From a virus, in the IMG/VR virus record IMGVR_UViG_3300036770_007174, positions 1 through 64,000 of that record: 64,000 nucleotides of DNA, one strand, 5' to 3'. Every line of letters begins with the position of its first letter. Positions within the stretch are counted from its first letter, which is position 1. The notes beneath the pieces are model-generated. The model was not told the origin of the DNA. It saw nothing but the letters and a program-made list of their open reading frames with translations, and did no database searches. A program made the translations under genes and the position numbers. Of this stretch, positions 25,437 through 54,142 are shown in pieces.

Positions 25437-27020
25437 ATGAATGAATTAGACAGAGCAGAACCAATGGTAAAGAGTCTTGGTGAAGATTACACGATCGTCG
25501 CTTTGGATAAATTTATCCAGGCTACCCGTGATTCCGGCTATAAGGGCACTGCAAGCGCTGTCGCAGAACTGATCGACAATTCCCTTCAAGCCGGAGCGAC
25601 CGAAATCGCCGTATCTATCACTGTGGATGAGAATGCCGACGAAAATCCGTTGATCCTGTCTGTTGTTGATAATGGATCCGGAATGGATGCCCGAACACTG
25701 CGGACCGCGTTGCGCTTCGGCGGCAGTTCCCGGTTCAATGATCGGAGCGGTCTCGGGCGCTATGGTATGGGGTTGCCGAACAGTTCGCTCAGTCAGGCGA
25801 AGCGCGTCACGGTTCATACATGGCAATCACGCAGCGGCCAGGTTCTTAGTTCGTACCTCGACATCGATGAGATCGCCGCCGGTGCGCTCATCACGGTTCC
25901 GGATCCGAAAGTCGTGCCTAGACCAAAATTCGTCGGTGGTCACGAGAGTGGCACCGCGGTCACTTGGTCCCGCTGCGACCGTCTGGATAATCGCCGTATA
26001 TCGACGCTCACCAGGCGCCTCCTGGTATCTCTAGGGCGCCGATTCCGGCATTTTCTTTGGGATGCGGTTTCGCTGAAGATCAACGGCGACATCGTCGAAC
26101 CGATCGATCCGCTGTATCTGCATCCAAGCAGCCGATTCTCTGGCGCGACGCAATTCGGAGATGAACTGGCAATTGAAGTTGCCGCAAGACCTGACGACCG
26201 CGCGACAACTGGGGTGGTGTACATCCGATTTTCTGAACTTCCCGTCGAGACATGGTCGAGCCTCGGAAACGACGAAAAGCGCTTTCGGGGTATCTCGAAG
26301 GGCGCTGGCGTGTCGGTCGTAAGGGCGGGCCGGGAGGTTGACTACGGCTGGTTCTTCCTGAACGGCAAGCGGCGGGAAAACTACGATGACTGGTGGCGCT
26401 GTGAGGTGCGATTTGACCCGGTGCTGGACGAAGCCTTCGGGATCACGCACAGCAAGCAGCAGATCCGTCCGATGTCCCACCTCGTCGAAGCTATCGCGCC
26501 AGACATAGAAGCGATCGCGAGAGCGCTCAACGTCCGTGCACGGAAGGCGCACCTTGCTGTCAAAACTGCTGAACGGTTCAGTGCATCCGAAGGTCGGGCG
26601 CGCGAAAAGGACATTATGCTTCCTCCGCTGCCGCCGCGGCGCCGACCTCGTGACGAGAAGGTCCTGGGCGGACTGGGGAAGAGTCTGCCTCCCAGCACTG
26701 ATGTGAGCGCTCCGCACCACAAGACAGAGTATCACATTCTTGCAAAGTCCCTCAGCGAGACGTTGTTTTTCAACTATGCCCGTGACGACGGAAGATTCGT
26801 GCTGGTCATCAATCCGGAGCACCCATTTTACAAGACCATATACAAACCCTTGCTTGATGCGGACACGCCGGCCGAGGCGGCCCTGCGAGGGCACCTCGAT
26901 CTTTTGCTCCTCGCTATGGCGCGAACTGAGGCCCTCCTAGAGAAGGAGACGGACATCAAGTTCGCGGAGGCTATTCGGAAGGGGTGGAGCGATACACTAG
27001 CAACACTCCTCGACTCCTGA
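25437..27020 (+). CDS. GHKL (Bergerat-fold) ATPase, first gene of Druantia-like operon
   Basis: 527 residues from ATG 25437; GTG 25431 is an alternative start. ATP-site motifs of the Hsp90/MutL/MORC superfamily are clear: N-box AELIDNS (E44, N48), G1 box VVDNGSGM (D78) and G2 box GLGRYGMGLPNSS (about 105-117). A transducer-like middle region follows, with 'SKGAGVSVVRAGREVDYGWF'-type sequence (key residues GVSVVRAGREVDYG) seen in MORC-like ATPases. The C-terminal third has no assigned domain. Such ATPases dimerise as ATP-driven clamps on DNA or RNA. GHKL ATPases are not core members of described Druantia types, so its place at the head of this operon is notable. The next gene starts 3 bases later. 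Confidence 0.85.
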   Translation: MNELDRAEPMVKSLGEDYTIVALDKFIQATRDSGYKGTASAVAELIDNSLQAGATEIAVSITVDENADENPLILSVVDNGSGMDARTLRTALRFGGSSRFNDRSGLGRYGMGLPNSSLSQAKRVTVHTWQSRSGQVLSSYLDIDEIAAGALITVPDPKVVPRPKFVGGHESGTAVTWSRCDRLDNRRISTLTRRLLVSLGRRFRHFLWDAVSLKINGDIVEPIDPLYLHPSSRFSGATQFGDELAIEVAARPDDRATTGVVYIRFSELPVETWSSLGNDEKRFRGISKGAGVSVVRAGREVDYGWFFLNGKRRENYDDWWRCEVRFDPVLDEAFGITHSKQQIRPMSHLVEAIAPDIEAIARALNVRARKAHLAVKTAERFSASEGRAREKDIMLPPLPPRRRPRDEKVLGGLGKSLPPSTDVSAPHHKTEYHILAKSLSETLFFNYARDDGRFVLVINPEHPFYKTIYKPLLDADTPAEAALRGHLDLLLLAMARTEALLEKETDIKFAEAIRKGWSDTLATLLDS

Positions 27021-27023
27021 CGG

Positions 27024-29075
27024 ATGAGTATGAGTTCCCTTCGTGAGTGGTTTGTGCTTGCGCCTTCACTGCCTGAAGAGGACGGGGCGCACGCAGCTTT
27101 CCTCGCACACGCAAAGCGACTGTCAAGCCTTTCGCAGCCTCTCGACGAGGGGACAGTGGAACGCATTACAAGCGAGGCAATGCATAGCCTCGGCGTCCTC
27201 TCACGCTCAGCACCATTGCGCGCTGCGCTTCTAATCCTGACAGACCTTGCTCATCAGCAGTGGGTCATTCGCGTGACAGCAAGCGGATCCGTCGAGGTCA
27301 GCCGTCCTGAAGAACAGCGCCTCGACCCGCTGGCCGAGAAGGAGCGCGTCCGAAAGCAGGAGTTGGTGAAGCGCGACGAGCAGTTGCGCGAGCCATCGAC
27401 CAGGCGGTTCGTCAGCGGGCTTGAAACGAGCTACCTCTACAAAGGCCGACGCGTCTCAATCTTTTCGCTGATGCGCGATGGCCGCGAACTCGCCGCTGGA
27501 CTTCGGCGTATCCGGGCGTCAGATCGGCAGATAAGCGCCGCAAGCCTCAGTCAGATCATCGACCCGTATCTCCAGTTTGTCGATGATGGCGTCGCGTGCG
27601 AGCACACTGGCCTCGCCCTCCAGGACGTTTGGCGGTATTTCCGCCATACCTGGACTAATCAATACACAAGCACACCGGGGCGGACGATGGCCTTCCTCGT
27701 CCGCGATCGTGCGTGCGATTACCATCCGGTCATCGGCATCGGAGCGCTCGGCAGCCCGATCGTACAAATTCGCGAGCGAGACGCCTGGATCGGCTGGCAC
27801 CCAGATGCTTTCCTCGATTTTGCAACCGAGGAAGGCTCGGCAGAGTTGGCTCATTGGCTGACCCTGACGGTCGATGCCAGTGTCAGCGAATGCTACGTTG
27901 AAGACTTCATCGAGGAGCAGTTGCTAACGCCGCGGGATTTCCGAGCCCCATCCATCGACGCCATCGCGCGACTCACCGCCTACGGCGAGTTGCAACGCGA
28001 CCTGCACCATAGGCTGGCGCGCAGCAAGGAAATGAAGCGCAGCACGCGATCGAGCGCCGAAAGCGACGAGGCACACTGGCGTAGCCAGGCACAGTCACAC
28101 CTGTATCGTAGTAAGCGGGCATTGGCGCTCGCGGATATGTTCCGCGTCAAGATCGCGCTCGCGAGGTTCTTGCCGGAGAACCCGACCGCGGACGACGTGC
28201 GTGCTATGCTGAAAGCTCCGGAGGGCCGACAGGCGGTCAAGACCGTGCTCCGGAAGGCTAAAGCCGCTCGCGTCGGAATCGCCATGGCCGACATTACGGT
28301 CTGCGGTGCAGTTGCACCTTACGGTCCCATTCTAGGTGGTAAGTTGATCTCCATGCTTGCTGCGAGCCCGGAAGTCATCGCAGCCTATCGGCATCGCTAT
28401 GCCAACCAACAGAGCGAGATCGCGTCGTCAATCGCCGGCCGCCCGATCGTGCGTCCATCTCATCTTGTGTTTCTTGGAACGACATCGCTCTACGGCGTCG
28501 GCTCGAGTCAGTATAACCGCCTACGGATGCCAGCCGCTCAGCTGGGCGGCAGAGATAGCGAGCAACTGGCCTTCCTCGAACTTGGCCGGTCCGGCTCTTA
28601 CGGAACGTCTCACTTCGGGTCCGCGACAGTCGAGGCGCTAGTCTCGCTCGTTCAGCAATCCCTCACCGGCCAGCGCGTGAACAGCATTTTTGGCGAGGGG
28701 GTAAGCCCGAAACTGCGGAAGATCCGAGATGGTCTGGACCGACTGAAACTGCCGACCGACGCGCTACTGATGCACGGCCGCCACCGCATCGTCTACGGCG
28801 TGCCGCTTATCCGGAACCTCCGCGAGTATCTGCTCGGGATGGACAGGGAGCCGGATTACCTCTTCGACTTAAGTGATCCGAAAGCGGGAACGCGCGCTGT
28901 CGTGTCCTGGTGGATGGAGAGGTGGCTCGTCGCTCGCCTTCAGAGCGACAACGCACTGCGGAAGGTGGCAAGCCACTCGCTTGTCCGTCCAATTCGACAT
29001 GGAGCCCGAGTCGTGCTCCCCCCGGAGGACCCAAACCAGACGTCGCTTTTCGACGATCTATCGCAATTCAACTGA
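27024..29075 (+). CDS. druA: DruA-like protein (DUF4338)
   Basis: 683 residues. The DUF4338 signature is spread over the middle and C-terminal parts: 'MAFLVRDRACDYHPVIGIGA' (about 215-235) with 'RERDAWIGW', then 'ITVCGAVAPYGPILGGKLIS' (about 428-447), 'RPSHLVFLGTTSLYGVGSSQ' (about 474-493) and 'YNRLRMP'. DUF4338 defines DruA of the Druantia anti-phage system. This is longer than the roughly 350-450 residue versions I know, with an extra N-terminal region of about 190 residues. Its biochemical role is not known; the fold has been likened to a degenerate transposase/nuclease. It is cotranscribed with the GHKL ATPase gene. Confidence 0.75.
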   Translation: MSMSSLREWFVLAPSLPEEDGAHAAFLAHAKRLSSLSQPLDEGTVERITSEAMHSLGVLSRSAPLRAALLILTDLAHQQWVIRVTASGSVEVSRPEEQRLDPLAEKERVRKQELVKRDEQLREPSTRRFVSGLETSYLYKGRRVSIFSLMRDGRELAAGLRRIRASDRQISAASLSQIIDPYLQFVDDGVACEHTGLALQDVWRYFRHTWTNQYTSTPGRTMAFLVRDRACDYHPVIGIGALGSPIVQIRERDAWIGWHPDAFLDFATEEGSAELAHWLTLTVDASVSECYVEDFIEEQLLTPRDFRAPSIDAIARLTAYGELQRDLHHRLARSKEMKRSTRSSAESDEAHWRSQAQSHLYRSKRALALADMFRVKIALARFLPENPTADDVRAMLKAPEGRQAVKTVLRKAKAARVGIAMADITVCGAVAPYGPILGGKLISMLAASPEVIAAYRHRYANQQSEIASSIAGRPIVRPSHLVFLGTTSLYGVGSSQYNRLRMPAAQLGGRDSEQLAFLELGRSGSYGTSHFGSATVEALVSLVQQSLTGQRVNSIFGEGVSPKLRKIRDGLDRLKLPTDALLMHGRHRIVYGVPLIRNLREYLLGMDREPDYLFDLSDPKAGTRAVVSWWMERWLVARLQSDNALRKVASHSLVRPIRHGARVVLPPEDPNQTSLFDDLSQFN

Positions 29076-29388
29076 CCCTAAGGGGATCTGTGGGCGGCCT
29101 GCACCGCACCGATCGCCTCCCGGCGGTCATGCAGAAGCCGACGTCGAAACGTAGGCTGTCAGCCCATGATCACTGGGCGTCTAACCAGTTCATCTGATCT
29201 GCGACACGAAAGGATCGCCGGGCCGCGATAGCACCTCCCTGGAGCAATGGATTTGCTTGCCAACCGAATACAGCGTGTTAAGCTCCTGCACGCCCTTACA
29301 GGGGTCCAGAAGGCGCTTAGGTGGGTTTTCGCATATTGCTCCAAGGATCAACACCAGACTCCACGATAGCAAGCCATCCCGCTCGACA
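29076..29388. other. intergenic gap inside the Druantia-like locus
   Basis: 313 bases without a supported gene, between the DruA-like gene and the 952-residue gene. An in-frame upstream extension of the next gene (from ATG 29257) exists. Its residues look non-conserved and have no ribosome site, so I treat it as leader. No clear terminator hairpin with a T run was seen. The gap may divide the locus into two transcripts. Confidence 0.4.
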
Positions 29389-32247
29389 ATGACGGAAGAC
29401 CTCAAGTACTGGCAGAAAAAACTTGAACGGCATTTCTCAAGTTTGCACCAAGCCAGAAAAGACAAGGGACTTCCTGTTTTCGCCCTTGAACATGGACTCA
29501 ACGAGGGTGAAAGGCGAACGATATCCGGGCTTCTGAGATCGAGTTTACAGAATTACGAAGCGCCCGGACACAGTTGGCTTCTCTGGGTGATCTATGCTGC
29601 CGAGCAAGGCTACGATTATGACGGCGATGAGTATTGGCGAACATATCAGGCGCGAACGCCGCTTTGGACTGAACGTGCAGATCGTGAGGCTCTGCGCCGC
29701 TGGTATCAGAAATTTCATACGACATACGGAGGCATAAAGCCAACCGGCTCTTGGGCGAGTTGGTTTTCTATTATTGCATGGCCGATCACCCATGCCTTGC
29801 TGCCGAGAGATCTTCAGTATCAGCTCGCTCGCGCGCTTTATCAACTTCGCTTTCCACTTGCGTCTCGGATCGACGAGCTGCCATCGGCCATCGGACATTA
29901 CATCGCAACGGCGTCCATCGAGTCGAGTTCCCGCTTCCAGAACTTTCTTCAGCAGGAAGAGCTAGTTGGGCGCATAGCGCTCGCCCTGCTCGGCGGACAC
30001 ACTGGTGGGGAACAACAGTTCATATATCCCCCAACGCTCGAGCGCATCGTAGAGGACATGCAGAGGGCGCGGGACGCGCGCGCCTGGTTGCGAGACGCTC
30101 GCCAGGCTGTCGAGAAGATCAGAATCAAGGGTGCCTTGCGCCACCCTCCGTTGAGGCGGGAGCACTCAGCCGGCGATCAACGAGCCAAGCACGAAGCGCA
30201 AGCGGCATCCTCTATCCGACCCAGCCTCACGCTCCGGCGCACATCTAAAACCGAATGGACGGTGGTCCTCGACCTGCCGAGTTTGCAACCGTTAGCCGAT
30301 CTCAATCCTGAACTCAGGCTCTTTCTTCGTAGGACACGGTGCACTGTGGCTGGGTCGCCCGGCATGCTTCCCGCTGGGTGGCTGTTGTCAGGCAGCCAGC
30401 ACCGGGTGGTTGTGCACTGGCCGCCGAGCAGCGCACCAGTGGTGCGATTTGAAGAGAGAAACGACCTCCTCGAGCATCTCCTCCAAAGCGACGGACGAAT
30501 TACAGCGGGTCCGTCATGGTTGTTTAAAGTGGGATCAGATGGCCTTGCGCGTGAGGTTGTAGGTCGCGTTGTACGACCGGGAGAACGTTACATTGTCGTC
30601 TCTACATCACAGGTTACTGAGTCCTCGCTTCTGCGGCGGGTGAACCTCAAGTGCAGCGGTGCTGCTGCTTGGGAGTTCGATTTACCTCCTCAACTCTCCC
30701 CCGAGCACTTGGCATGGCTGCGTGAACTTAGCCTCTCACTGGCTCAAACGGTACGCATCTGGCCGGCTGGCCTTGCCGCGCGCCGATGGGATGGAGAAGG
30801 TTTCGCGGAATGGCTCGAAGGTGAAACACCGTGCATTGCTCTTCACGCCGATCACCCGGTTTCTCATTTTGAACTGCAACTCGACGACGGCCAGCCAATC
30901 CGAGTCGCTCAGCCTCTGGCTGGGCAGCCGCTCTTCGTGGCACTTCCGGGCTTAGCGCGCGGCAGGCATCTTCTTGCCGTACGCGCTCAACGCGTCGACG
31001 TTACGGATCGAGGCGATCAGGCGCCTGCCGAGGGGTTTCTGTCGATCATCGTCCGCTTGCCCCGGCCTTGGGCAGCGGGAACCACGTCTCATAGTGGCCT
31101 TGTGGTGTCCACCAACCCTGCCGAACCAAGCTTGGATCAGTTGTGGAAGGGCGACATCGAATTGCAGATTCTAGGCCCCTCAGGCAAGCGCGTTCGCGTG
31201 TTCCTTGAGCTAAACAACAGTTCTGGCGAGACACTCTCAACCGAACAGATAACGGATCTGTTGCTGCCAGTCGCGCCGGGCTCTTGTGCCCGCGCCATGA
31301 GCGAATTCTTGCGCAAAGAGCCGAGTCCTTGGTCATACCTTAGCGCCAGCGGTGGCCACCTCCTTGTCGACGGCGAGGAGATGGGAACTCACCGTGTGCC
31401 CCTGCATCGAGACGTAAGTCCCTTGCGTTGGGTCTGGCCTGCAACGCAGCGCGCGACTGTGCTGCGCCTCGTCAACGATTGCGATAGCGCAGAGCCTCTC
31501 AGCGCTAGTTTCTATCCGTTCGAGACACCCATTGAGGGAAAGTCGCTAGCGCCTGCTCTCGTGACAGAGGCATGGACGCCGGAAGGAACGGGTGGCCTCT
31601 GCGTCGCTTCCTGCGGCGGTCACCGCCAAACACTTGTTGTAAGTATGCCTCAGGTAAGGGGCGGACTAGCTGGCCTTTTGATCGAGCCGACTATCCATAG
31701 GTTGCCACCTGGCGAAGCTGCCCTAGCGGCCTTGCTGGACTTGATTTCTGCCTGGTCCGGAGCTCGCGTCGTGGGACCGCTGGCCTCCGACAGGCGCACG
31801 AGAGTCGTGAACCGCCTCCGAGAGTATGTCCTTCGCCACCTATATGGGGCTGAGTGGGTACAAGCTGAAGCAAGTTATGAACGGTCGCAAAGGACAGAGC
31901 CGAACCTGCGACGATTGGCTGAGCAAATCGGCGGTAACCCCGCGTTTGGCTTCGTTCTCGCTCGCGATTTGGGAAGATACCGGAGCATGGACCCTAGCTT
32001 GCTGCTGAGCAGTCTGGCCGCCCTGGCCGGCCGCTACGGAGTAGCTTCTTACGATGCTTGTAAGGCGGCGATAGAACTCTGTGGGGGCCTTGAGCGAGGG
32101 GCGGTCTGGACGCGTCCTGTGCTCGAGCGCCTCCTGGCCGATGTAAGATCATGTCCGACGATCCTCAGGGGCGTACGGTTTGTCGCTGTCGCCAAGCCGA
32201 TACCATCGTCCGAGCAGTCGCGCGGCACGGCCCACGTGCGCAGATGA
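29389..32247 (+). CDS. unknown 952-residue protein of Druantia-like operon
   Basis: Start chosen at ATG 29389 (MTEDLKYWQKKLERHFSSLH). The N-terminal 200 residues form a Trp/Tyr-rich helical module, with 'HSWLLWVIYAAEQGYDYDGD' and 'ASWFSIIAWPITHALLPRD' as striking motifs. The middle (about 250-680) is beta-rich, like repeated Ig or beta-sandwich domains. The C-terminal 250 residues are helical with 'RVVNRLREYVLRHLYGAEW'. No nuclease, helicase or ATPase motif is visible. Its place between druA and the druE-like helicase suggests that it replaces the DruB/DruC components. Its stop overlaps the next start by four bases, showing coupled synthesis. Confidence 0.75.
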   Translation: MTEDLKYWQKKLERHFSSLHQARKDKGLPVFALEHGLNEGERRTISGLLRSSLQNYEAPGHSWLLWVIYAAEQGYDYDGDEYWRTYQARTPLWTERADREALRRWYQKFHTTYGGIKPTGSWASWFSIIAWPITHALLPRDLQYQLARALYQLRFPLASRIDELPSAIGHYIATASIESSSRFQNFLQQEELVGRIALALLGGHTGGEQQFIYPPTLERIVEDMQRARDARAWLRDARQAVEKIRIKGALRHPPLRREHSAGDQRAKHEAQAASSIRPSLTLRRTSKTEWTVVLDLPSLQPLADLNPELRLFLRRTRCTVAGSPGMLPAGWLLSGSQHRVVVHWPPSSAPVVRFEERNDLLEHLLQSDGRITAGPSWLFKVGSDGLAREVVGRVVRPGERYIVVSTSQVTESSLLRRVNLKCSGAAAWEFDLPPQLSPEHLAWLRELSLSLAQTVRIWPAGLAARRWDGEGFAEWLEGETPCIALHADHPVSHFELQLDDGQPIRVAQPLAGQPLFVALPGLARGRHLLAVRAQRVDVTDRGDQAPAEGFLSIIVRLPRPWAAGTTSHSGLVVSTNPAEPSLDQLWKGDIELQILGPSGKRVRVFLELNNSSGETLSTEQITDLLLPVAPGSCARAMSEFLRKEPSPWSYLSASGGHLLVDGEEMGTHRVPLHRDVSPLRWVWPATQRATVLRLVNDCDSAEPLSASFYPFETPIEGKSLAPALVTEAWTPEGTGGLCVASCGGHRQTLVVSMPQVRGGLAGLLIEPTIHRLPPGEAALAALLDLISAWSGARVVGPLASDRRTRVVNRLREYVLRHLYGAEWVQAEASYERSQRTEPNLRRLAEQIGGNPAFGFVLARDLGRYRSMDPSLLLSSLAALAGRYGVASYDACKAAIELCGGLERGAVWTRPVLERLLADVRSCPTILRGVRFVAVAKPIPSSEQSRGTAHVRR

Positions 32248-33308
32248 TTAAGGTTGTTGAGGATCAAGACGTGACCCGACTGGCGCGCGGCGATCTTCGG
32301 TTGGCGCAGGCCGGTGGAATCGATGATGGCTACATCGCCGGAGCGCTGCGCCGTCTCGCCGGCTTCCTGTGCCCATGCTCGCCAAAGACCTTGCTTCGAT
32401 CAATGGTGGAAAGCCACCGCGGCCTTGCAGGAGCGCCCGAAGATTTTGCTGCTCGTGTTGAAGACGTTCTTGAAGCGCTGGTAGCTGTTGGCGACCTGCT
32501 TGAGTTGCGCGACGTGACTACTCTCGACGAGACCGTCAAGGCAACATGGGTGTTTGCCGCGCCTCCTTCCTTCGTGCTGCGGCCATCAGGCAGTGCGTAC
32601 ATTCTTGGGCTCGCAATGGACGAGGCAACGCCGCTGCCGGGAGACCTGCTGCAGAGGCTGCAGGTGCGCGGCGCGACGCGCACGATCGGTTCCCTGCCGG
32701 GCGAGGACCTTGGGAGCCTGCTCCGCAGGCTCAGCCTGCGCGAGTTGTCGAGTGAGGCCTGGCTGCGGCATCCAAAGCGCGAGGAACCCGGGGCGTTGGT
32801 GGCGGCGCTAAATGCGCAACTCGATCGCCAGCGTCCGGCTGGCGAGTTGGCGGAGTTGCGCGTCTTGGACGGCGCGCGCCGTGCGCGGAGTTATCGGAAC
32901 CGCTGGTGTGAGCCAGGATCGCTCACCGGCCGCTTCATCGTTCGTCGCCCGCAGGCCTATGGCGCCGATCTGTGGGCATACGCAGAGCTTGACGAAGGCA
33001 GAGCCGTCAAAGCGCTCGATTTTCCGCCCCCAGGAAGCCGCTGGCGAGGCTGCGACTTGGCCTGGCGCGCCCAGATGGCAATGGATGCTCTCAATGGTGA
33101 CCATCAGCGCTACCGGCAGACATCGGAAAATGGCACTGCGACCTTCGATTTTTTCTCGCCAATTCCGGACTGGGCACGGCGGCGCCTTGCCTGCATTGGG
33201 GAGCAAGTCGAGTCAGAAGCCAGCTTGCTCTGTTTTCGGATTCCCGAAAATGAGGCGCCCGCAGAAGAAGCCTTTCTTCAAGAATTTCTCTTCCTGAGAC
33301 GCGAATAG
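32244..33308 (+). CDS. unknown 354-residue protein of Druantia-like operon
   Basis: The start at ATG 32244 overlaps the previous stop (ATGA); the longer frame from 32151 would overlap by 97 bases. The N-terminal half is helical (ALRRLAGFLCPCSPKTLLRS near 33-52), possibly a winged-helix or HTH-like region. The C-terminal half has mixed strands with 'GSLTGRFIVRRPQAYGADLWAYA' (key residues GRFIVRRPQ, LWAYAEL). I recognise no family. The coupling to the 952-residue protein and to the helicase gene 21 bases downstream suggests that it works with both. Confidence 0.7.
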   Translation: MIKVVEDQDVTRLARGDLRLAQAGGIDDGYIAGALRRLAGFLCPCSPKTLLRSMVESHRGLAGAPEDFAARVEDVLEALVAVGDLLELRDVTTLDETVKATWVFAAPPSFVLRPSGSAYILGLAMDEATPLPGDLLQRLQVRGATRTIGSLPGEDLGSLLRRLSLRELSSEAWLRHPKREEPGALVAALNAQLDRQRPAGELAELRVLDGARRARSYRNRWCEPGSLTGRFIVRRPQAYGADLWAYAELDEGRAVKALDFPPPGSRWRGCDLAWRAQMAMDALNGDHQRYRQTSENGTATFDFFSPIPDWARRRLACIGEQVESEASLLCFRIPENEAPAEEAFLQEFLFLRRE

Positions 33309-33329
33309 AGACCACGGAGACGGACGCAG

Positions 33330-36300
33330 ATGACACGGACGATCCAAGAGACTATCGACGAACTACACGCGTCCTTGAAGGATTACATTGAGGCGACATA
33401 TCACATCGGGGACGCTAAGCTGATTGGCCAGAGACGCAGGCTACTCAGCCAAGTCGGCGTCACCCGTCAGGTGCCTTACTTAGAGTCGACGCCGCGCTAT
33501 TGTCTCGGAGAACGGTTCTGCAACATGGCTGGCTTGCCTCCCGCCGCCCTTGCGGTGTACGAGGCGCTCGCGACGGCCAAGGACGGTAAGCCACGGCTAT
33601 TGTTCGACCCGCCGTACCGGCACCAAGCTGAAGCCATCCGCCACGCTCTGATCGGCGGGAAGAACCTGATGGTCATGACCGGTACCGGCTCGGGGAAAAC
33701 CGAATCCTTTCTTCTTCCCATCCTTGGCAAGTTTGCGCATGAGGCTGCCGAACGGCCCAAAGCGTTCAGTCAGCATGCAGTGCGCGCCATCCTGCTCTAC
33801 CCGATGAATGCGCTCGTCAACGATCAACTCGGTCGGCTGCGTGCTCTATTCGGCGACCCGCGCCTCGTCCGCATGTTCAGCAAGTGGTCAGGCAGGCCGC
33901 CGACCTTCGCGAGGTACACCAGCCGGACACCCTATGCAGGGGTACGGACGGCAAAGCGAGACGGCAAGAAACTGGCGTCGTTCGAAGAGTTCTTCGTCGA
34001 GATCGAGAGGCAAGCGGCGGACGGCGCGCCCGACGAGCAGGCTGCAGCGCGCAAGCTTCGTGACCAGCTCAAGGCGCGCGGGAAGTGGCCGGCAAAGCCG
34101 GATCTAGCCGAGTGGTTTGGCCCCAAGAACGGTCGTTGGGTTGATCAAAAGACCAAGGCTTTCTTGCGGGCTGTTACCTTACCCGGTGATTCCGAACTTC
34201 TGACGCGCCACGAGGTGCAGGAGGCAGCGCCTGACCTCCTGGTCACCAACTATTCCATGTTGGAATACATGCTCATGCGGCCGATCGAGCGGCCGATTTT
34301 CGACCAGACCCGTGCGTGGCTCGCTGGAAACCCGCACGAGAAGATCACCGTGGTGCTCGACGAGGCCCACCTTTACCGTGGCGCCGGAGGGGCCGAGGTC
34401 GCCCTGCTTCTACGCCGGTTGCGAGATCGTCTCGACATCACGCCTGATCGGTTCCAGGTCATCTGCGCAACCGCAAGCTTCGGTAGCCGCGAATACGCGA
34501 GAGACTTCGGCTCGCAGTTGACCGGCGTGCCAGCGGAGACCATTGAACCGGTCACAGGCGATCTTGATCTACGAGCGCACGCCGCTCCAGGTACTCAGGA
34601 CGACGCCGCGGCTTTAGCAAACCTAGATCTCGAGCGCTTCTACTCAGCCGACGCGAGAGAGCGCGCCGACGCAATCACTCCCCTGCTCGCCTACCGATCT
34701 ACCGAAGCGACAGGCAACGTCGAACGGGATCTGCATGCGGCGCTCGCAGACTTTGAGCCGCTCGGACTCTTGGTAAACCTTACTATGAAGGCCGCGCGTG
34801 CAGTGGCGAGTCTCGGTCCGGCTCTTTTCCCGGACAGCCCTGGCATCGCCGACCGGGCAGTGACGGCCTTACTGGCCCTCGGTAGCGTCGCTCGGGAGAC
34901 ACCGGACGCTGCCGGCCTTCTCCCATGCCGCATCCACAATTTCTACCGCGGGCTGCCAGGCCTGTGGGTGTGCATGGATCCTAATTGCACGGAAATTGCG
35001 ACCAACGAACGGTCTGGATTATGCGGACGCATGTACAGTCAGCCGCGCGAGGCCTGTGGATGCGGCGCGCGAGTATTGCAGTTCTATACATGCAGGAACT
35101 GTGGCGCGGCCCATGCGCGAGCATACACCGATGACGTCGACCGGCCAAACGCGCTTTGGCCCGAACCGGGTCGTAAATTGAAGATGCAAGGTGGCGAAAC
35201 CAGCCCATTGCTCGACCTAGACCTCCTACTCGAGGAGCCACGCCTCGCCGAGTTGGCAGAAATTGCAGACTACGATCTCGAGACAGGACGGCTTAACCCA
35301 GCAGTACTTGGAGAACGTCGACGATCAGTTTATATTCGCAAGGATCGCATAGCGCCGGCGGCTGGCGACGATGGCGAAGTCGACACTCGGCTGGAAGTAA
35401 GAGGCCAATTCATCCCGTGCGCCGTGTGCGGCGAGAGTGCCGCGTTCGGTAGGTCGTCTGTTCAGGATCACCAAACGAAGGGCGATCAACCGTTCCAGGC
35501 ACTGGTCGCGCGCCAAATTCAGGTGCAACCGCCCGGGCCGCAGCCTTCAACGACCTTTGCGCCACTGCGCGGCCGGAAGGTCCTAGTCTTCTCAGACTCG
35601 CGTCAGGTCGCTGCGCGACTGGCGCCTAATCTGCAAATGTACTCCGTGCGTGATGCACTTCGTTCGCTGATCGTGTGGGGGTTCAACCGCCTACGCAAAC
35701 ATCCGCTCGTCACGGGCATGCTTAACCTCGACGACCTGTATCTCGCTACGCTGCTTGCGTCGCGCAGCCTGGGAGTTCGCCTTCGACCGGAGCTAAAGGC
35801 CGGCGAGAGCTTCGCGGCCGATGCAGTTGTCGAGGCGGCCGTGAAGGATGGCGCACTCAGCGATGACCAAAAGCTCCAAATGCTTTGGATGGAAATTCGC
35901 AGCGACACACCCCCTGAAGCTCTACTCGACGACATCGTCAAGACAGTACGGGACCGCTATCTCGGGCTTGAGGCTTTGGCGCTAGCATCCGTGCGCGAAA
36001 TCGCTAGCAAGACGAAGGATCTACACGCCCTGCCACCTATCAGCGGCATCGCAAGTACGAATGACGAGAAGGTGGCACTCGCCCGTGCTTGGTTGCGGTG
36101 CTGGCGGTCCGAGGGCTTCTGGTTGAACGCGATGCCACCGACTTGGCACAAAGTCAAAGTGCGGGCGCGCAAAGGGTCGTTCCAGGCAATGCGCAAGATC
36201 TTGCCAGACAAAGGAGCCCACAAGATCTTTGAGAAAGCCTGGCATCCTGCGCTAATGTCCATCTTCACTACAGAAATGGAAAGCGGCTACCGGCGTCTGG

Positions 36301-38870
36301 CTGGGAAGAATCTCTCGCTCGAACTCGACGGGCTTTGGGTGCGCTGCGCCTCCTGCCGTTCCGTGCACCGGCCCGTACCGAAAATCCCGCACTGCTTGGA
36401 TTGCGGCGCGGCAGGCGTCGTCCCGCTCGACCCGAGTTCCGACAAGGTTTTCACAGCACGCAAGGGTTACTACCGGGGCCCAGTGACCGCAGCCATGGGC
36501 AATCCGGCGCTTCCGCCCATGGCGCTGGTTGCTGCCGAGCACACAGCGCAGTTGAACGCACCGCAAAGCGAGGACGTGTTCTCCAAGGCGGAAGAGAATG
36601 AGCTGCTGTTCCAAGATGTCGAACTGTCCTGGGGAAACGGCGGAAAGCGCATAACGGCCATTGACGTGCTCTCGAGCACCACAACGATGGAAGTCGGTAT
36701 TGATATCGGCGCCCTGTCGGGCGTTGCGCTTCGCAACATGCCGCCGGGACGGGCGAACTACCAGCAGCGAGCTGGTAGAGCCGGCCGGCGTGGTAACGCG
36801 GTTGCGACCGTCGTCGCTTTCGGCAGCGCCGACAGTCACGACGAGCACTACTTCAGCAAGCCTGACGCCATGATTGCTGGGCCGGTTGTCGATCCGAAGC
36901 TCACGCTGGAAAACCCCGATATAGCTCGCCGCCACATACGAGCCTTCCTCTTACAGAGATACCATCAGGACAGAATTCTCGCTTTCGACCCCGCCGCAAA
37001 TCCCGACCTCTTCTCAGTTCTCGGTACCGTTTCGGACTTTCAGAGCGTGACTGCGCGGCTCAACCGGACGGACTTTGCCAAGTGGCTCGCCCAGCACGCG
37101 TCCGTGCTGAGGGAGCGCGTCGCAAGTTGGATTCCAGACAAACTGAGTGAAGCTGACCGCAAACAACTTCTCGAAAACATGGCGGCAGATTGCCTCGACG
37201 CGATCGACGAAGCGCTCGGCGGGACTGCGCCGACTGGACAGAAGATACTGGAGGATGCGGGAGCGGGGGACACCTCTGAAGAGGAAGGAGAAGCACCTCC
37301 AGAGGCAGGCGAGGAGACGTCCGGGCAAAAGACGCTCAACGGGAAACTGCTCGACCGTCTGCTCTACAAAGGGGTGCTTCCCCGCTATGCATTCCCAACT
37401 GACGTCGCGGCCTTCAGTGTCTTCGACGTTGATCGATCGACTTCCCACCGGCCGGTCATGAAATTCGCGCCGTCCCAGAGCTTGCCGGTGGCGCTTTCAC
37501 AATACGCCCCTGGCAAACAAGTTTGGATCTCCGGAAAGTGCTATACTTCGGGAGCGGTTTATTCGCCTATGGCGGAGGACCGCTATCGTGCTTGGCAGAA
37601 CCGTAGGCTCTACCGGGAATGCGTAGAGTGCAGTTTCGCTGAGACGGTACCGGTAGACGCGGGCGTCAAGACGGGCGATTCTCACGACTGCTACGCCTGT
37701 GGTGCGCTCGGCTCATTCGGCCCGACGCGATACTGGCTTCGACCGCCAGGTTTCGCACATCCGGCTTATGCGCCTGAGGTCACGTCGCCGGACGACATGC
37801 CCGAGACCGCGTATGCGACACGCGCCAAACTGACCATGCCGACCCCGGCGGACAGCGCGAAATGGATTGACGTGAACGGCCGCATACGCGTGATGGCCGA
37901 CCGCAAGCACCTTCTCGTATCGAACACCGGTCCGCGACGGGACGGTTACGACTACTGTACCAAGTGCGGCCGAATTGAAGCGTCTGCCGAAGCGTCTGGC
38001 GTGTTGGCCGGACCCCACCAGAAGCCGTTCCCGGACGAGAAAGAGCAAACCTGCCCGGGCGCTGGTACGACGCGCCACCTGATGTTGGGGACAGACTTCA
38101 TCACGGATATCGCCTTGCTCTCGCTGCGAGTGGCAGCACCCTTGAAGTTGAAGCCAGGCTTCTACCCCACCGACGTCGCCCTTCGAACGGTGAGCGAGGC
38201 GCTGGCCAAGGCCGCTTGCGAGATGCTTGAGATCGAAGCGGGCGAACTGCTGGCGGAATACAGACCGGCACTGACGCCAGGCGGCCGGAATGGCTTGGAG
38301 GCCGAGATCTTCCTCTACGACACGCTACCTGGCGGTGCCGGCTTCGCAAGCCAACTGACGAGCAGAGGGGAAGAACTGTTTCAGCGTGCACTTTCGCTGA
38401 TGAAGTGCTGCCCAGAGGGCTGCGACGCATCGTGTTACCGATGCCTACGCAGCTTCAAAAACAAGTTCGAGCACACCGTCCTAGACCGACATGTCGGCGC
38501 CGAATTGGTCGAGTATCTCATGAATGGAGAAATGCGGCCCTTTGACGCAAGGCGCATCAGGGCTTCGACTGAACTGCTGCTGAAGGACTTGCAGCGGCAG
38601 GCCGATGGCACCCGCTTCGAACTGGAGAAGGAGTTCGACATACCTGGCGTCGGTAAGGTCACCGTCCCAATCTTGGCGACGCGCTCAACAGGAGACCAGT
38701 TTGCGATTGCTCTAACCGGTGCACTGACGAATGAGCATCCGGCAGATCCAGCCATCGCTCGCATGCGCGAGGAGTGGGACGCACTCCGCGTGGTCACTGT
38801 GAATGAGTTGCTTGTTCGTGGGAATCTGCCTGCGGCAACGCGAGGTGTTTTGAGTCAGTTTGCGCAGTGA
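33330..38870 (+). CDS. druE: DruE-like giant DEAH helicase with DUF1998 domain
   Basis: 1846 residues, in the size range of DruE proteins. The superfamily 2 helicase core has Walker A MTGTGSGKTES (about 115-125), motif II VVLDEAHLYRG (D344-E-A-H347), and a C-terminal helicase lobe with TTTMEVGIDIG and YQQRAGRAGRRGN (about 1150-1170). A large insert (about 540-700) carries several Cys pairs (CMDPNC, CGCGAR, CRNCGAAHAR) for zinc. The DUF1998 domain near the end has CCPEGCDASCYRC, another zinc centre, then the LPGGAGFA motif before it. DruE helicases are the hallmark of all Druantia types and are needed for phage defence. The ribosome site is GGAGACGG. Confidence 0.88.
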   Translation: MTRTIQETIDELHASLKDYIEATYHIGDAKLIGQRRRLLSQVGVTRQVPYLESTPRYCLGERFCNMAGLPPAALAVYEALATAKDGKPRLLFDPPYRHQAEAIRHALIGGKNLMVMTGTGSGKTESFLLPILGKFAHEAAERPKAFSQHAVRAILLYPMNALVNDQLGRLRALFGDPRLVRMFSKWSGRPPTFARYTSRTPYAGVRTAKRDGKKLASFEEFFVEIERQAADGAPDEQAAARKLRDQLKARGKWPAKPDLAEWFGPKNGRWVDQKTKAFLRAVTLPGDSELLTRHEVQEAAPDLLVTNYSMLEYMLMRPIERPIFDQTRAWLAGNPHEKITVVLDEAHLYRGAGGAEVALLLRRLRDRLDITPDRFQVICATASFGSREYARDFGSQLTGVPAETIEPVTGDLDLRAHAAPGTQDDAAALANLDLERFYSADARERADAITPLLAYRSTEATGNVERDLHAALADFEPLGLLVNLTMKAARAVASLGPALFPDSPGIADRAVTALLALGSVARETPDAAGLLPCRIHNFYRGLPGLWVCMDPNCTEIATNERSGLCGRMYSQPREACGCGARVLQFYTCRNCGAAHARAYTDDVDRPNALWPEPGRKLKMQGGETSPLLDLDLLLEEPRLAELAEIADYDLETGRLNPAVLGERRRSVYIRKDRIAPAAGDDGEVDTRLEVRGQFIPCAVCGESAAFGRSSVQDHQTKGDQPFQALVARQIQVQPPGPQPSTTFAPLRGRKVLVFSDSRQVAARLAPNLQMYSVRDALRSLIVWGFNRLRKHPLVTGMLNLDDLYLATLLASRSLGVRLRPELKAGESFAADAVVEAAVKDGALSDDQKLQMLWMEIRSDTPPEALLDDIVKTVRDRYLGLEALALASVREIASKTKDLHALPPISGIASTNDEKVALARAWLRCWRSEGFWLNAMPPTWHKVKVRARKGSFQAMRKILPDKGAHKIFEKAWHPALMSIFTTEMESGYRRLAGKNLSLELDGLWVRCASCRSVHRPVPKIPHCLDCGAAGVVPLDPSSDKVFTARKGYYRGPVTAAMGNPALPPMALVAAEHTAQLNAPQSEDVFSKAEENELLFQDVELSWGNGGKRITAIDVLSSTTTMEVGIDIGALSGVALRNMPPGRANYQQRAGRAGRRGNAVATVVAFGSADSHDEHYFSKPDAMIAGPVVDPKLTLENPDIARRHIRAFLLQRYHQDRILAFDPAANPDLFSVLGTVSDFQSVTARLNRTDFAKWLAQHASVLRERVASWIPDKLSEADRKQLLENMAADCLDAIDEALGGTAPTGQKILEDAGAGDTSEEEGEAPPEAGEETSGQKTLNGKLLDRLLYKGVLPRYAFPTDVAAFSVFDVDRSTSHRPVMKFAPSQSLPVALSQYAPGKQVWISGKCYTSGAVYSPMAEDRYRAWQNRRLYRECVECSFAETVPVDAGVKTGDSHDCYACGALGSFGPTRYWLRPPGFAHPAYAPEVTSPDDMPETAYATRAKLTMPTPADSAKWIDVNGRIRVMADRKHLLVSNTGPRRDGYDYCTKCGRIEASAEASGVLAGPHQKPFPDEKEQTCPGAGTTRHLMLGTDFITDIALLSLRVAAPLKLKPGFYPTDVALRTVSEALAKAACEMLEIEAGELLAEYRPALTPGGRNGLEAEIFLYDTLPGGAGFASQLTSRGEELFQRALSLMKCCPEGCDASCYRCLRSFKNKFEHTVLDRHVGAELVEYLMNGEMRPFDARRIRASTELLLKDLQRQADGTRFELEKEFDIPGVGKVTVPILATRSTGDQFAIALTGALTNEHPADPAIARMREEWDALRVVTVNELLVRGNLPAATRGVLSQFAQ

Positions 38871-38900
38871 GGTCTAGCCTGGGAGCGCGCGGCAAACCTA

Positions 38901-40892
38901 ATGATCCACATTATCGGTGTCCGTGAAGGGCAGGAATATGAGGCCGCCGTCCACCTTCGGAGGCTTCTCTTAAATCTCTGGCCGGATTTGGCGCAAAGCA
39001 AAGATGATGTTGTCAAGATATTTGTTGGCTTTAAGATGTACGGTTACAAAGTCGAGGATCTCGACCTTGTTGTCATTGGCAGATTTTCTGCTCCCCGACC
39101 ATTTGACATCGAGTTTCAGTTCTACCCGAGAGATGGCGATCCGTTTGTGCCAAGGAGCGCCAGCATAGCGAATTTTGCGCTCGTCATTGAGGTTAAGTCG
39201 CATGACGCGAGCGGCGTCCGCTTTGAAAACAAAGTCGCATCAGTGCGCTACATCCGGAATGGACGCGCAGTCTGGGAGTGCGTGACTGAAAAAAATCGCA
39301 TGCAGATGTTCGAATTTAAGAAGTACCTTGGACGGCAGGGACTTGGAAAAGTTCATGTTCAGGATTTGGTCCTTTTCACGGGGCTGCGTGAGAGCGACCT
39401 CCCGAAGCGTCCGCACAATTGCGTAGCAGGGGACGCGAGCTTTGAGCGCGTTCTAAACGTGCTCGGGCAAATCTCGCGGCCAATCCGGCATGGTACTCAG
39501 GTAAACCTGATTTTCGGGTCCGACGACGCCTTTCAGGATCTGCTATGCTCGGATTTTCCGTTGTTTGATGAAATCGAGCCAACGTCGCTCGACCGGCGAA
39601 GGATGGACATGATCGCCCGCCGAGCGCTGCCAGATGAGTGGCTCGACGATCTTGGGGAGCGCCAGATTGTCCTGAGAGGCCGCGGAGGCGTCGGGAAGAC
39701 CGTCCTCCTCCTGCAGATGGCCTACCGCGCGTTCGAGTCCAGGCAAATGCGTTCATTGGTTTTGACATTCAACAAGGCTTTGGTCGCGGACCTGAGGCGC
39801 ACCATGGCATTGCTCGGAGTACCACATAGTGCCGAGAAGGGCGGAATTGCTGTCGAAACCGCACACGCGTTCTTTGGGCGCTTGATGCGAGGTTTAGGTA
39901 TCATTGAAAATTACGAGGGCTATCTCGAAGGCTACACCGCGCTCAAAGCGACACTTCTCACGTATCTCCAGACGGAAGCGATTAGCCGCGACGACATAAA
40001 CAGTCTGCTTTCGGGTCAGTCGCTGGATTTCGACTGGGATCTGGTTCTTGTTGATGAGGGCCAGGATTGGCCGGCCGACGAGATTGAAATCTTGCGCACC
40101 ATTTACGGCGAATCAAAGATGGTCGTATCGGATGGTGTTGATCAGTTTGTCCGCGAATCTGTCGCAGACTGGTCGCGGGGGCTGGCTAAGTCAGCCACGA
40201 AATCGCGGCGGCTGACACGCTGCATGCGCATGAAGGCTAACCTAGCGACCTTTGTTGGCGAGATGGCGGAGGAACTCCAACTTTCAGGTTGGGACCTAGA
40301 GCCGAACGCTATGGCAGTTGGCGGCAAAGTGGTTGTGTTCGAAGGCGACCTGGCATCCAGCCCGATGGTCATTCAGCGGCTCACGGCGGAAGCAGTCGCT
40401 TTAGGCAACCACCCCGTCGATATGCTTGCGTGCGTGCCGCCATCGATGGTCGATCCGACGGCGGATGGTCAGGTCTGCAGGCCCGCCGCCTTGTTTGCGG
40501 CCGCTGGCGGTTGCGTTTGGGACGGCACGTCGCGAGATGTGCGCGAGCATTTTCCGACAGAGCGCCAGCAATTGCGCTTTGTCCAATACGACTCCTGTCG
40601 TGGGCTGGAAGGATGGGCGACTATCAACTACGCACTTGACGAGCTATGGGAATATAAGCGCGGTCAATGGCTTGCTGGTGACTACCGAACTGACGGGCTC
40701 GACAAATCTCCAGACGAATTGGCAGAACTTCATGCTTCGAGATGGCTGATGATCCCGCTGACTCGCGCCATCGATACATTGGTGGTGAACGTTGGCACGA
40801 ATGAGAGCGCCGTGAAAACGATGCTTCGGAGAGTTGCGAAGAGGCGGGGTGACTTCATCGAATGGATTACCAGTGGCGAGCACTTGGCGTGA
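38901..40892 (+). CDS. NERD/PD-(D/E)XK-like nuclease fused to UvrD-like helicase
   Basis: 663 residues. The N-terminal 150 residues look like a nuclease of the NERD/PD-(D/E)XK kind: D55 in VEDLDLVVIG and E97-x-K99 in ALVIEVKSHD. The rest is a superfamily 1 ATPase with Walker A LRGRGGVGKTVLLLQ (K266) and Walker B LVLVDEGQDW (D385-E386-G-Q-D389), and a C-terminal part with 'RAIDTLVVNVG'. It lies 30 bases after the helicase gene, so it is probably the last gene of the same operon and could degrade or unwind DNA exposed by the others. Compared with Gabija GajB, it joins nuclease and helicase in one chain. Confidence 0.75.
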   Translation: MIHIIGVREGQEYEAAVHLRRLLLNLWPDLAQSKDDVVKIFVGFKMYGYKVEDLDLVVIGRFSAPRPFDIEFQFYPRDGDPFVPRSASIANFALVIEVKSHDASGVRFENKVASVRYIRNGRAVWECVTEKNRMQMFEFKKYLGRQGLGKVHVQDLVLFTGLRESDLPKRPHNCVAGDASFERVLNVLGQISRPIRHGTQVNLIFGSDDAFQDLLCSDFPLFDEIEPTSLDRRRMDMIARRALPDEWLDDLGERQIVLRGRGGVGKTVLLLQMAYRAFESRQMRSLVLTFNKALVADLRRTMALLGVPHSAEKGGIAVETAHAFFGRLMRGLGIIENYEGYLEGYTALKATLLTYLQTEAISRDDINSLLSGQSLDFDWDLVLVDEGQDWPADEIEILRTIYGESKMVVSDGVDQFVRESVADWSRGLAKSATKSRRLTRCMRMKANLATFVGEMAEELQLSGWDLEPNAMAVGGKVVVFEGDLASSPMVIQRLTAEAVALGNHPVDMLACVPPSMVDPTADGQVCRPAALFAAAGGCVWDGTSRDVREHFPTERQQLRFVQYDSCRGLEGWATINYALDELWEYKRGQWLAGDYRTDGLDKSPDELAELHASRWLMIPLTRAIDTLVVNVGTNESAVKTMLRRVAKRRGDFIEWITSGEHLA

Positions 40893-41563
40893 AGGGATCA
40901 GGCTAGGGTCACCTCAGCTTATCTATGTCGTCTTGAAGACTGGTTCAGAATGTCTGCGCGAGGGTCGCGGTGGAGCTTCCGTCCTTGCCACGAGAAGGGC
41001 TCGGCTGACGCTGGTGACATCAGCTAACGCGACAGCGATCACGGGGCGAAAGAGAACCGCGGAAACGTCCCGTGCGGTGTTCTCGACGGTCTCTCGGCTG
41101 TACGCGGATCGTTGATGGGACCGGGGTGTCAGGACCAAAGCAGAGATCGCTTGGTATGCGATCGGAGCGCATAGCGTCCTTCGCGTAAAGCGGCAACCCA
41201 GAGAATGTTGGTCCCCGGCTTCGACCGCCGCTCCAATGACCACCACCCCACCTTTCTCTCCAGGCGGATGGGCCACGTAGAACCCCAAGAAATTTGGGGG
41301 TTTTTCGCGTGGGGTTGGGGGTGGCTTGGGCGCCAGAACCCCGCTTTCGCTCTCCGGAGGGGCATTTCTCTCCGAAGCTTGGGGGTAGGCGGATTTACAC
41401 CCAAGGTTTCAACACGCTGAAATCAGGACATTTTTTTCAAGGAGCACCTTGGGAGTTGCGTGTGTCGACTGGCCGGGTGGATGCGCTGCAAGACGAATGA
41501 TTCAGTCCCAAGCGGCATAGCCTTCTTCTGGGTCACGTCCCCGCTAATCGTGTAGAATATGCC
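40893..41563. other. 671-base gap between the Druantia-like operon and the Argonaute genes; G-rich
   Basis: No supported gene. Short frames on both strands here lack domains and ribosome sites. At 41282-41303 a CCCCAA...TTTGGGGG hairpin is followed by TTTTT, a plausible terminator. Close by, G runs at 41295-41299, 41311-41314, 41317-41321 and 41328-41330 could form a four-stranded G structure. Another stem pairs CTTGGGGGT (41378-41386) imperfectly with ACACCCAAG (41397-41405). The stretch may mark the join of two independently acquired defence cassettes. Confidence 0.45.
41282..41303 (+). terminator. likely rho-independent terminator
   Basis: AACCCCAA pairs with TTTGGGGG across a short GAAA-like loop and runs straight into TTTTT. 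It would end transcription from the nuclease-helicase gene before the Argonaute cassette. The stem is short with one bulge. Confidence 0.5.
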
Positions 41564-45063: not shown

Positions 45064-45322
45064 CGACAACGCCGCTCTTTCATGGCGTCGCTTCCCCGGT
45101 GATGGCGTAACCCCTCTGCCAGTGGTCGACATGCCCGCGCCCTTAGCGGGGCGCCGGAGATGGTTATCGGATCAGTCGTTTACGCCCGGTTTCCAGGACA
45201 CGCACGGGCTCCGCCGCAATCCGCCTGAACTCACTGATTTCGACCAAGAATGCGGTTTCCCTGAGCGTTGCTTCGCGGACTCTCCCCGCGTAGTGTGCGA
45301 AGCAGGTGACGGAGAGATTCGC
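45064..45322. other. leader region before the methyltransferase gene
   Basis: About 260 bases between the Argonaute effector and the chosen methyltransferase start. The methyltransferase frame is open through here from ATG 45041, but those residues look unlike the family and lack a ribosome site, whereas GGAGAG at 45311-45316 lies 6 bases before ATG 45323. No separate control gene is present. Confidence 0.4.
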
Positions 45323-48377: not shown

Positions 48378-48761
48378 CTACTCGCCAGATACTGGTTTGC
48401 TCCACTGCACTCCCACCCCCTTCATCAGCGCTGGCAACGTCACCCCCTCCTCCTGCCGCCCCTCCAGGATCGCCTCCACGATCGCAGGCGCAAGCAGCGT
48501 CAGCCGCAACACGTCGCCGACGTATGTCCGGTCCAGCTTTTCGGCCCGCGCGATATCGGAGACGGAGGCGTAGGTGCCGTCGTCCAGAAGCCGCTTCCAC
48601 CGGAAGGCCCGCCCCAGCGCCTTCAGCAGCGACGGATCGGCGTTGGTCGCAAACTGCCGCGGCGCGGTGGTCAGCACGGACCCTTCCGGCGACACCACCA
48701 CCTTCCGCCCGCCCCGCTTCCGGATCGCCAGCGGCACCCGCACTGTCACCGTGTCGGCCAT
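48378..48761 (-). CDS. small HTH protein of the recombinase operon (127 aa)
   Basis: 127 residues. The N-terminal MADTVTVRVPLAIRKRGGRK is followed by a helical part with 'ASVSDIARAEKLDRTYVGDV', a clear helix-turn-helix (about residues 64-90) like that in ParB/Spo0J-related DNA-binding proteins. It is a regular companion of DUF2924-linked serine recombinases. Its start overlaps the recombinase stop by one base. It likely helps the recombinase choose sites or direction, which is inferred from context. Confidence 0.65.
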   Translation of the reverse strand: MADTVTVRVPLAIRKRGGRKVVVSPEGSVLTTAPRQFATNADPSLLKALGRAFRWKRLLDDGTYASVSDIARAEKLDRTYVGDVLRLTLLAPAIVEAILEGRQEEGVTLPALMKGVGVQWSKPVSGE

Positions 48762-50783: not shown

Positions 50784-50784
50784 C

Positions 50785-50838
50785 GCGCTACGATACACAT
50801 TGGCACGCCGTCGGGGAGTGCGTATTTGTAGCGCTACA
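50785..50838 (-). promoter_or_regulatory. operator-like sites at the recombinase operon promoter
   Basis: A perfect 12-base palindrome, TGTAGCGCTACA (50827-50838), lies between the repressor stop and the recombinase operon. A half site, GCGCTAC, recurs at 50785-50791. The same GTAGCGC core occurs twice upstream of the repressor gene, so these are probably repressor operators that shut the recombinase operon in the lysogen. Confidence 0.55.
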
Positions 50839-50861
50839 TGATGCGCCGCGGATTCGGCGCG

Positions 50862-51638: not shown

Positions 51639-51640
51639 TA

Positions 51641-51671: not shown

Positions 51672-51728
51672 AAAATTTTCCTACTTCAAGTCTTGTGAAT
51701 GTGCCGCGACAGTCTGTATCTGTTGCGC

Positions 51729-54141: not shown

Positions 54142-54142
54142 C

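What the first reader, a model, noticed from the sequence alone, without database searches (positions are those of the whole stretch)
25437..40892. Extended Druantia-like operon with a GHKL ATPase, two unknown large proteins and a nuclease-helicase
The sequence shows a DUF4338/DruA-like protein and a 1846-residue DruE-like DUF1998 helicase in one locus. They come with a GHKL ATPase in front, two unrecognised proteins (952 and 354 residues) in the middle, and a NERD-like nuclease-helicase behind. Known Druantia types are defined by druE with druA-D, druM/F/G or druH. To my knowledge none combines a GHKL ATPase with a nuclease-helicase. This could be an undescribed Druantia subtype or a new system that shares the core.
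Basis: partly seen in the sequence, partly recalled or inferred. Interest (0 to 1): 0.85.

Follow-up and report, generated by a model that had tools for sequence, protein, structure and literature searches.

The report
Modular Druantia variant carried by prophage
A six-gene phage-defence operon sitting in the cargo region of a prophage is a previously unnamed version of the Druantia system, found in nine bacterial phyla, in which a DNA-clamp-type ATPase and a separate nuclease are swapped in and out as modules around a fixed helicase core.

Summary
The six genes are real and at the stated coordinates. Between DruA and DruD lies a 952-aa protein that no library knows; DruB and DruC are absent. 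Across 84 loci with the same core, the order 952-aa protein, DruD, DruE is constant. The DruA part exists in two exclusive forms: short DruA alone (39 loci) or long DruA always with a GHKL ATPase (37 loci), with no mixed case and about six swaps on the DruE tree. Directly behind DruE, half of the loci have a nuclease gene: a NERD-type nuclease-helicase (as here) or a Cas4-like nuclease, never both. The complete six-gene set occurs in ten other alphaproteobacteria. The GHKL protein is closest to MORC ATPases. The 952-aa protein is modelled as a helical head, an Ig-like array and a helical tail, and evolves fastest, like the Druantia III sensor DruH but without detectable homology. The operon is cargo between the tail genes of one prophage and the integrase of a second, next to an Argonaute pair and a restriction system. 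New variant of a known kind; the mechanism is inferred.

The parts
25437..27020 (+). GHKL ATPase of MORC/MutL type (always paired with long DruA)
   Evidence: Pfam HATPase_c_3 1.5e-22; profile matches MORC2 4.4e-14 ahead of MutL 7.5e-8 in PDB sequences; ATP-site residues E44, D47, N48, D78, G80, G82, G107, G110, G112 and K340 conserved
27024..29075 (+). DruA, long form (683 aa)
   Evidence: PADLOC PDLC00001 DruA 663 bits; Pfam DruA 3.4e-31; model pLDDT 88.6, no PDB fold match below E 0.3
29389..32247 (+). 952-aa core protein of unknown family, stands where DruB and DruC stand in type I
   Evidence: no Pfam, PADLOC or NCBIfam match; family found in 85 ORFs of the loci; AlphaFold model pLDDT 86.6: helical 5-246, beta-rich with Ig-like matches about 279-752, helical 776-934
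32244..33308 (+). DruD (354 aa), start overlaps the stop of the previous gene by 4 nt
   Evidence: PADLOC PDLC00012 DruD 509 bits
33330..38870 (+). DruE1, YprA-family helicase with MrfA Zn-binding (DUF1998) region
   Evidence: PADLOC PDLC00013 DruE1 2042 bits; DEAD, Helicase_C, MZB; helicase motifs invariant in A1; no conserved set of nuclease residues at the C-terminus over 77 loci
38901..40892 (+). NERD-like nuclease fused to a SF1 (UvrD-like) helicase, in the slot behind DruE
   Evidence: 17-row alignment: D53/D55, E97-x-K99, Walker A GRGGVGKT and DEGQDWP conserved; weak nuclease/helicase library matches; family directly behind DruE in 22 loci
41283..41299 (+). terminator-like hairpin with T run behind the operon
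   Evidence: consensus scan, 22 found against 14.0 expected by shuffling, so weak

Best explanation
This is a new, modular variant of Druantia (nearest to type I) that most likely attacks phage DNA. Shown by sequence: DruE helicase, DruD and a 952-aa protein form an invariant core without DruB/DruC; a MORC-type GHKL ATPase with a long DruA is an alternative to a short DruA; a nuclease gene occupies a fixed slot behind DruE. Inferred mechanism: (1) the 952-aa protein, a helical head followed by Ig-like domains, is the recognition part that senses an infection, as DruH is proposed to do in type III; (2) the GHKL ATPase closes around DNA as an ATP-dependent dimer, as MORC and MutL do, and with DruA marks or holds the target; (3) DruE loads on DNA with a 3' single strand and unwinds it, as measured for type III DruE; (4) because the C-terminal nuclease region of this DruE appears inactive, cutting is done in trans by the NERD nuclease-helicase, which other lineages replace by a Cas4-like nuclease. 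Identity and modularity I hold at about 0.95, DNA-targeting defence at about 0.8, and the division of labour in steps 1-4 at about 0.35.
For: DruA, DruD and DruE1 profiles. Core order in 80 of 84 loci from nine phyla; DruB and DruC profiles found only in the P. putida plasmid. GHKL with long DruA 37 of 37, with short DruA 0 of 39; six label changes on the DruE tree, five forced by strongly supported branches, against 25.7 when shuffled. Exclusive nuclease slot: NERD-helicase 22, Cas4-like 22 (Pfam PDDEXK_1 down to 8e-21, PADLOC DruK 1e-12), never both. MORC2 as best PDB relative of the GHKL profile. The 952-aa protein is the least conserved core part: median identity 30% against 34% for DruD and 54% for DruE over 77 loci; its beta-rich middle matches multi-Ig proteins, best E 2.3e-5. 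Same defence neighbourhood: Argonaute, helical REase, type II RM. Type III DruE helicase and DruH sensor data and the inactive Vsr domain of type I DruE are from PMC13192584 and PMC12458937.
Against: No experiment on this variant. No sequence homology between the 952-aa protein and DruH (hhalign probability 0.2), so the sensor role rests on shape and rate only; Ig arrays are common and the Foldseek hits have low TM-scores (about 0.1). GHKL is also fast-evolving and could be the sensor. Many short-DruA loci have no nuclease gene in the slot (20 none), so a trans nuclease is not always linked and DruE or DruA may cut by itself. DruA has no recognisable fold.
Confidence: 0.55

Rival explanations
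1. It is ordinary Druantia type I with two accessory genes: the 952-aa protein is a diverged fusion of DruB and DruC, and GHKL and the nuclease are neighbouring defence genes that happen to be next to it.
For: DruA, DruD and DruE score against PADLOC type I models; the 952-aa gene sits where DruB-DruC sit in P. putida.
Against: Profile comparison of the 952-aa family with DruB and DruC gives probability 0.4 and 0.2 percent (single DruB and DruC sequences only); PADLOC DruB/DruC models miss four tested members; GHKL is never absent from long-DruA loci and never present with short DruA, in parallel orders and in convergent ones.
Confidence: 0.2
2. GHKL-DruA is the infection sensor and switch: phage DNA state is read by the clamp ATPase and DruA, and the 952-aa protein is only a scaffold that holds DruD and DruE.
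For: The cassette is exchanged as a unit around a constant core, as expected of a specificity or trigger module; GHKL is nearly as diverged as the 952-aa protein among six-gene loci (median identity 53% and 47%).
Against: The short-DruA loci do without GHKL, so sensing by GHKL cannot be general; the 952-aa protein is the least conserved part of the core.
Confidence: 0.25
3. The locus is a decaying cargo block of the prophage with no present function.
For: Some relatives are broken, such as the Sinorhizobium medicae copy interrupted by IS elements.
Against: All six frames are open here, catalytic motifs are intact and close relatives keep the same set.
Confidence: 0.05

Closest known systems
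Druantia type I (druABCDE)
   Same: DruA, DruD and DruE1 present and in the same relative order; PADLOC type I models match with 663, 509 and 2042 bits
   Different: No DruB or DruC; a 952-aa protein in their place; long DruA tied to a GHKL ATPase; NERD nuclease-helicase behind DruE
Druantia type III (druH-druE; mechanism in PMC13192584)
   Same: YprA-family DruE with a large, fast-evolving partner that has Ig-like domains
   Different: No DruH homology; no PLD nuclease match in this DruE; separate nuclease gene
Prokaryotic MORC / paraMORC operons (Iyer 2008, PMC2292703)
   Same: MORC-like GHKL ATPase with a superfamily II helicase and a nuclease in one operon
   Different: That paper's text does not mention DUF1998, DUF4338 or NERD
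ARMADA, BRIGADE, TALON (PMC12458937)
   Same: YprA-family helicase core; TALON also has a NERD nuclease
   Different: No BrxHII-like helicase, PglX methylase, 7-deazaguanine genes, TPR-CSD or TBP among the six genes
MZA (MzaB)
   Same: GHKL domain similarity to MzaB, 59 bits over residues 26-146
   Different: NCBIfam MzaB score 81.8 against a cut-off of 850; no other Mza protein

Membership tests
Druantia (any type) | DruE, a YprA-family helicase with MrfA Zn-binding region | tested here: met
   PDLC00013 2042 bits over residues 2-1844; DEAD, Helicase_C, MZB
Druantia type I | DruA (DUF4338) | tested here: met
   PDLC00001 663 bits; Pfam DruA above cut-off
Druantia type I | DruB | tested here: not met
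   no PADLOC hit in the six proteins; hhalign of 952-aa family to P. putida DruB probability 0.4 percent
Druantia type I | DruC | tested here: not met
   no PADLOC hit; hhalign probability 0.2 percent
Druantia type I | DruD | tested here: met
   PDLC00012 509 bits
Druantia type II | DruM, DruF, DruG | tested here: not met
   no match to these names among PADLOC hits of the six proteins (for DruE only the best 25 of 31 families were shown)
Druantia type III | DruH | tested here: not met
   no PADLOC hit; hhalign with E. coli DruH probability 0.2 percent
PADLOC or DefenseFinder system rule for Druantia | minimum gene count and spacing | not testable with these tools
   profiles are at hand, the system rules are not
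Prokaryotic MORC ATPases | GHKL domain with intact ATP site, closest to MORC by sequence | tested here: met
   ATP-site residues conserved; MORC2 best by sequence profile
Prokaryotic MORC ATPases | GhXhhpXXRhl motif in the S5 domain | tested here: inconclusive
   GVSVVRAGREV fits the first nine positions; the tenth is E instead of a hydrophobic residue (sequence; motif)
MZA system | MzaB at NCBIfam cut-off | tested here: not met
   81.8 bits against 850
Anti-phage defence function | reduced plating of phage | not testable with these tools
   needs an experiment

The most novel reading that the evidence does not exclude
A separate class of Druantia in which target recognition (GHKL clamp with long DruA, or short DruA alone) and target cutting (NERD-helicase, Cas4-like nuclease, or others) are plug-in modules on a constant core of an Ig-array protein, DruD and a nuclease-dead DruE, so that the helicase works as a platform and the clamp ATPase loads it on DNA.
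Probability: 0.4. Interest if true: 0.8.

Novelty: new variant of a known kind. Interest (0 to 1): 0.62.

Why it matters
I found no mechanism for Druantia type I in the open library searched. Comparing two natural forms that differ by one cassette (short DruA, or long DruA plus a MORC-type ATPase) and by one nuclease gives a ready-made way to find out which part senses, which part loads and which part cuts. It would also put a MORC-like clamp ATPase, a family known for silencing transposons in animals and plants, into a defined bacterial immunity operon, and it shows that PADLOC's Druantia profiles miss three of the six genes of this form.

Tried and rejected
DruB/DruC fusion for the 952-aa protein: rejected by profile comparison, with the caveat that only one DruB and one DruC sequence were available. 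DruH homology: rejected at sequence level. PDB sequence search for the 952-aa protein, DruD, DruA and the nuclease-helicase: nothing convincing. DruA fold in PDB: best E 0.3, nothing. Viral structure library for the 952-aa protein: only Ig/FnIII-type and tail proteins with low TM-scores. Viral contig search with DruD alone: no relatives. Promoter scan: four sites against 4.2 expected, uninformative. DruB prevalence in 399 Pseudomonadota: zero, but the control genomes also gave zero, so no conclusion.

Full report
What is there. Six + strand ORFs occupy 25437-40892 exactly as described. PADLOC profiles identify 27024-29075 as DruA (663 bits, the 675-position long-DruA model), 32244-33308 as DruD (509 bits) and 33330-38870 as DruE1 (2042 bits). 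The first gene is a GHKL ATPase (Pfam HATPase_c_3, 1.5e-22). The last has a NERD-like nuclease head and a SF1 helicase body; libraries see it only weakly, but in 17 relatives the D-x-D, E-x-K, GRGGVGKT and DEGQDWP residues are kept. The 952-aa protein matches nothing in Pfam, PADLOC or NCBIfam. DruB and DruC are absent.

How it is distributed. A scan of 84,980 species genomes with a DruE alignment kept the best 80 loci, and IMG/VR gave 15 more, several of them distant. I built profiles for each gene and mapped every neighbourhood. In 84 loci with the 952-aa protein or DruD, 80 have both with DruE, always in the order 952-DruD-DruE. They come from Pseudomonadota, Acidobacteriota, Actinomycetota, Gemmatimonadota, Planctomycetota, Chloroflexota, Bacteroidota, Myxococcota and Thermodesulfobacteriota. 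A rough frequency is low: apart from the centre genome itself, 2 of 398 Pseudomonadota species have the 952-aa family, one of them only its N-terminal part.

Two exclusive DruA modules. Of the 76 core loci in which a DruA is visible, 37 have a long DruA and all 37 have a GHKL gene with it; 39 have a short DruA and none has GHKL. The short DruA usually stands directly before the 952-aa gene. The GHKL+long DruA pair stands either before the core (as in the window) or, more often, convergent behind it. On a DruE tree of 88 rows the label changes six times, at least five of them forced by strongly supported branches, against 25.7 for shuffled labels (a quick tree with some long branches; deep placements are uncertain). 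So the pair moves as a cassette.

A nuclease slot. Directly behind DruE, in the same direction and within about 80 nt, lies the NERD-helicase (22 loci) or a 400-450-aa Cas4-like PD-(D/E)XK nuclease (22 loci), never both; in seven Streptomyces loci a PDC-M02 pair with a DUF4365 gene lies there instead. Of the long-DruA loci 26 of 37 have one of the two nucleases; of the short-DruA loci 16 of 39, with 20 clearly empty and three cut by the contig end. PADLOC's DruK, a nuclease of another Druantia type, is a distant relative of the Cas4-like family. The C-terminal end of DruE has no conserved nuclease residues over 77 loci, in agreement with the published statement that type I DruE carries an inactivated Vsr domain (PMC12458937). 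A nuclease supplied in trans is therefore a reasonable reading.

The exact six-gene set is complete in ten other alphaproteobacteria: Sphingomonas (two), Aureimonas, Novosphingobium (two), Phenylobacterium, Rhizobium giardinii, Azospirillum, Sphingobium and Propylenella. Propylenella has the same order as the window and the closest DruE (79%).

A more distant lineage (Leisingera, Paracoccus; DruE 39% identical) again has GHKL, long DruA, DruE and a NERD protein in this order, then a protein with a weak DruD match (1.3e-5), then a convergent SNF2 helicase and a full-length homologue of the 952-aa protein. The parts therefore belong together beyond the close family.

What the parts may do. The GHKL profile finds MORC2 (4.4e-14) ahead of MutL (7.5e-8) among solved structures, with the ATP-site residues conserved. 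MORC-type ATPases were earlier predicted to work with SFII helicases and nucleases in restriction operons (PMC2292703). The model of the 952-aa protein (mean pLDDT 86.6, pTM 0.48, so the domains are reliable but not their arrangement) has a helical head, a long beta-rich region whose matches are multi-Ig proteins (best E 2.3e-5, low TM-score) and a helical tail. It is the least conserved core component (30% median identity against 54% for DruE). In Druantia III, DruH has helical ends, Ig-like domains and fast evolution, and is proposed as sensor, while DruE loads on 3'-tailed DNA (PMC13192584). I found no sequence homology to DruH, so this is an analogy. DruA has a confident model (pLDDT 88.6, pTM 0.89) with no match in the PDB.

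Where it sits. The window is 1-64000 of a 92,335-base virus record. Left of the operon are terminase, portal, head, tape-measure and tail genes; right of it, after an Argonaute with helical REase and a type II restriction system, are a serine integrase, a CI-type repressor, exonuclease, helicase and primase. Beyond 64 kb a second terminase (91% identical), portal and head set follows. The record thus most likely holds two related prophages in tandem, and the defence block lies between the tail end of one and the integrase of the next. In a related viral record (G001) the integrase and tail genes (88% and 87% identical) enclose other defence genes (ZorC- and ZorD-like, an LmuA-like protein), so this place looks like an exchangeable cargo slot of this phage family. 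Which of the two prophages owns the block is not settled.

Known or new. No paper in the library holds Druantia together with GHKL or MORC, and the one that holds Druantia, DruE, helicase and NERD uses NERD for TALON. The 2025 YprA survey says that type I and II Druantia are more diverse than known, but its main text gives no such gene set; its supplement was not readable here. I did not look up the original 2018 description, so what defines the types rests on my own knowledge and the papers cited. I file this as a new variant of Druantia, not as type I, because DruB and DruC were tested and not found.

Noticed in passing
window 1-25079 and 48761-64000; L191: Probably two related tailed prophages in tandem (TerL 91% identical) with a 23-kb lower-GC defence block between tail genes of one and the serine integrase of the next.
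   Followed up: partly
window 41564-45063: Argonaute (PADLOC pAgo_II 740 bits) with helical-REase partner (397 bits); a 77%/70% identical pair lies behind the same integrase family in L120:17943-21452.
   Followed up: partly
window 44966-48209: Type II restriction-modification pair: Eco57I-like methylase and BsuBI/PstI-type endonuclease.
   Followed up: no
window 41196-41412; L113:16386-16602: A 217-bp stretch behind the operon is 92% identical at a cargo boundary of a related phage that carries other defence genes; it includes a terminator-like hairpin. Possible exchange point for cargo cassettes.
   Followed up: no
L003:2823-17879, L004:1431-15033: A homologue of the 952-aa protein stands with other helicases beside DrmA/DrmB-like genes, a UvrD helicase and a NERD protein (L003), a DISARM-like set that does not match the DISARM gene sets I know.
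   Followed up: partly
L044:18-3726, L094:17016-20445, L009:3697-7979: Two adjacent GHKL genes before long DruA, which suggests a heterodimer as in MutL-alpha.
   Followed up: no
L060, L063, L067, L070, L086, L089, L090: Streptomyces loci carry PADLOC candidate genes PDC-M02A/B between DruE and the convergent long DruA.
   Followed up: partly
L060:21140-21682 and similar in L067, L068, L070, L083, L087: A 150-245-aa protein next to GHKL in six actinobacterial loci, weakly (E 0.004, below cut-off) like the Fapy-glycosylase N-terminal domain.
   Followed up: no
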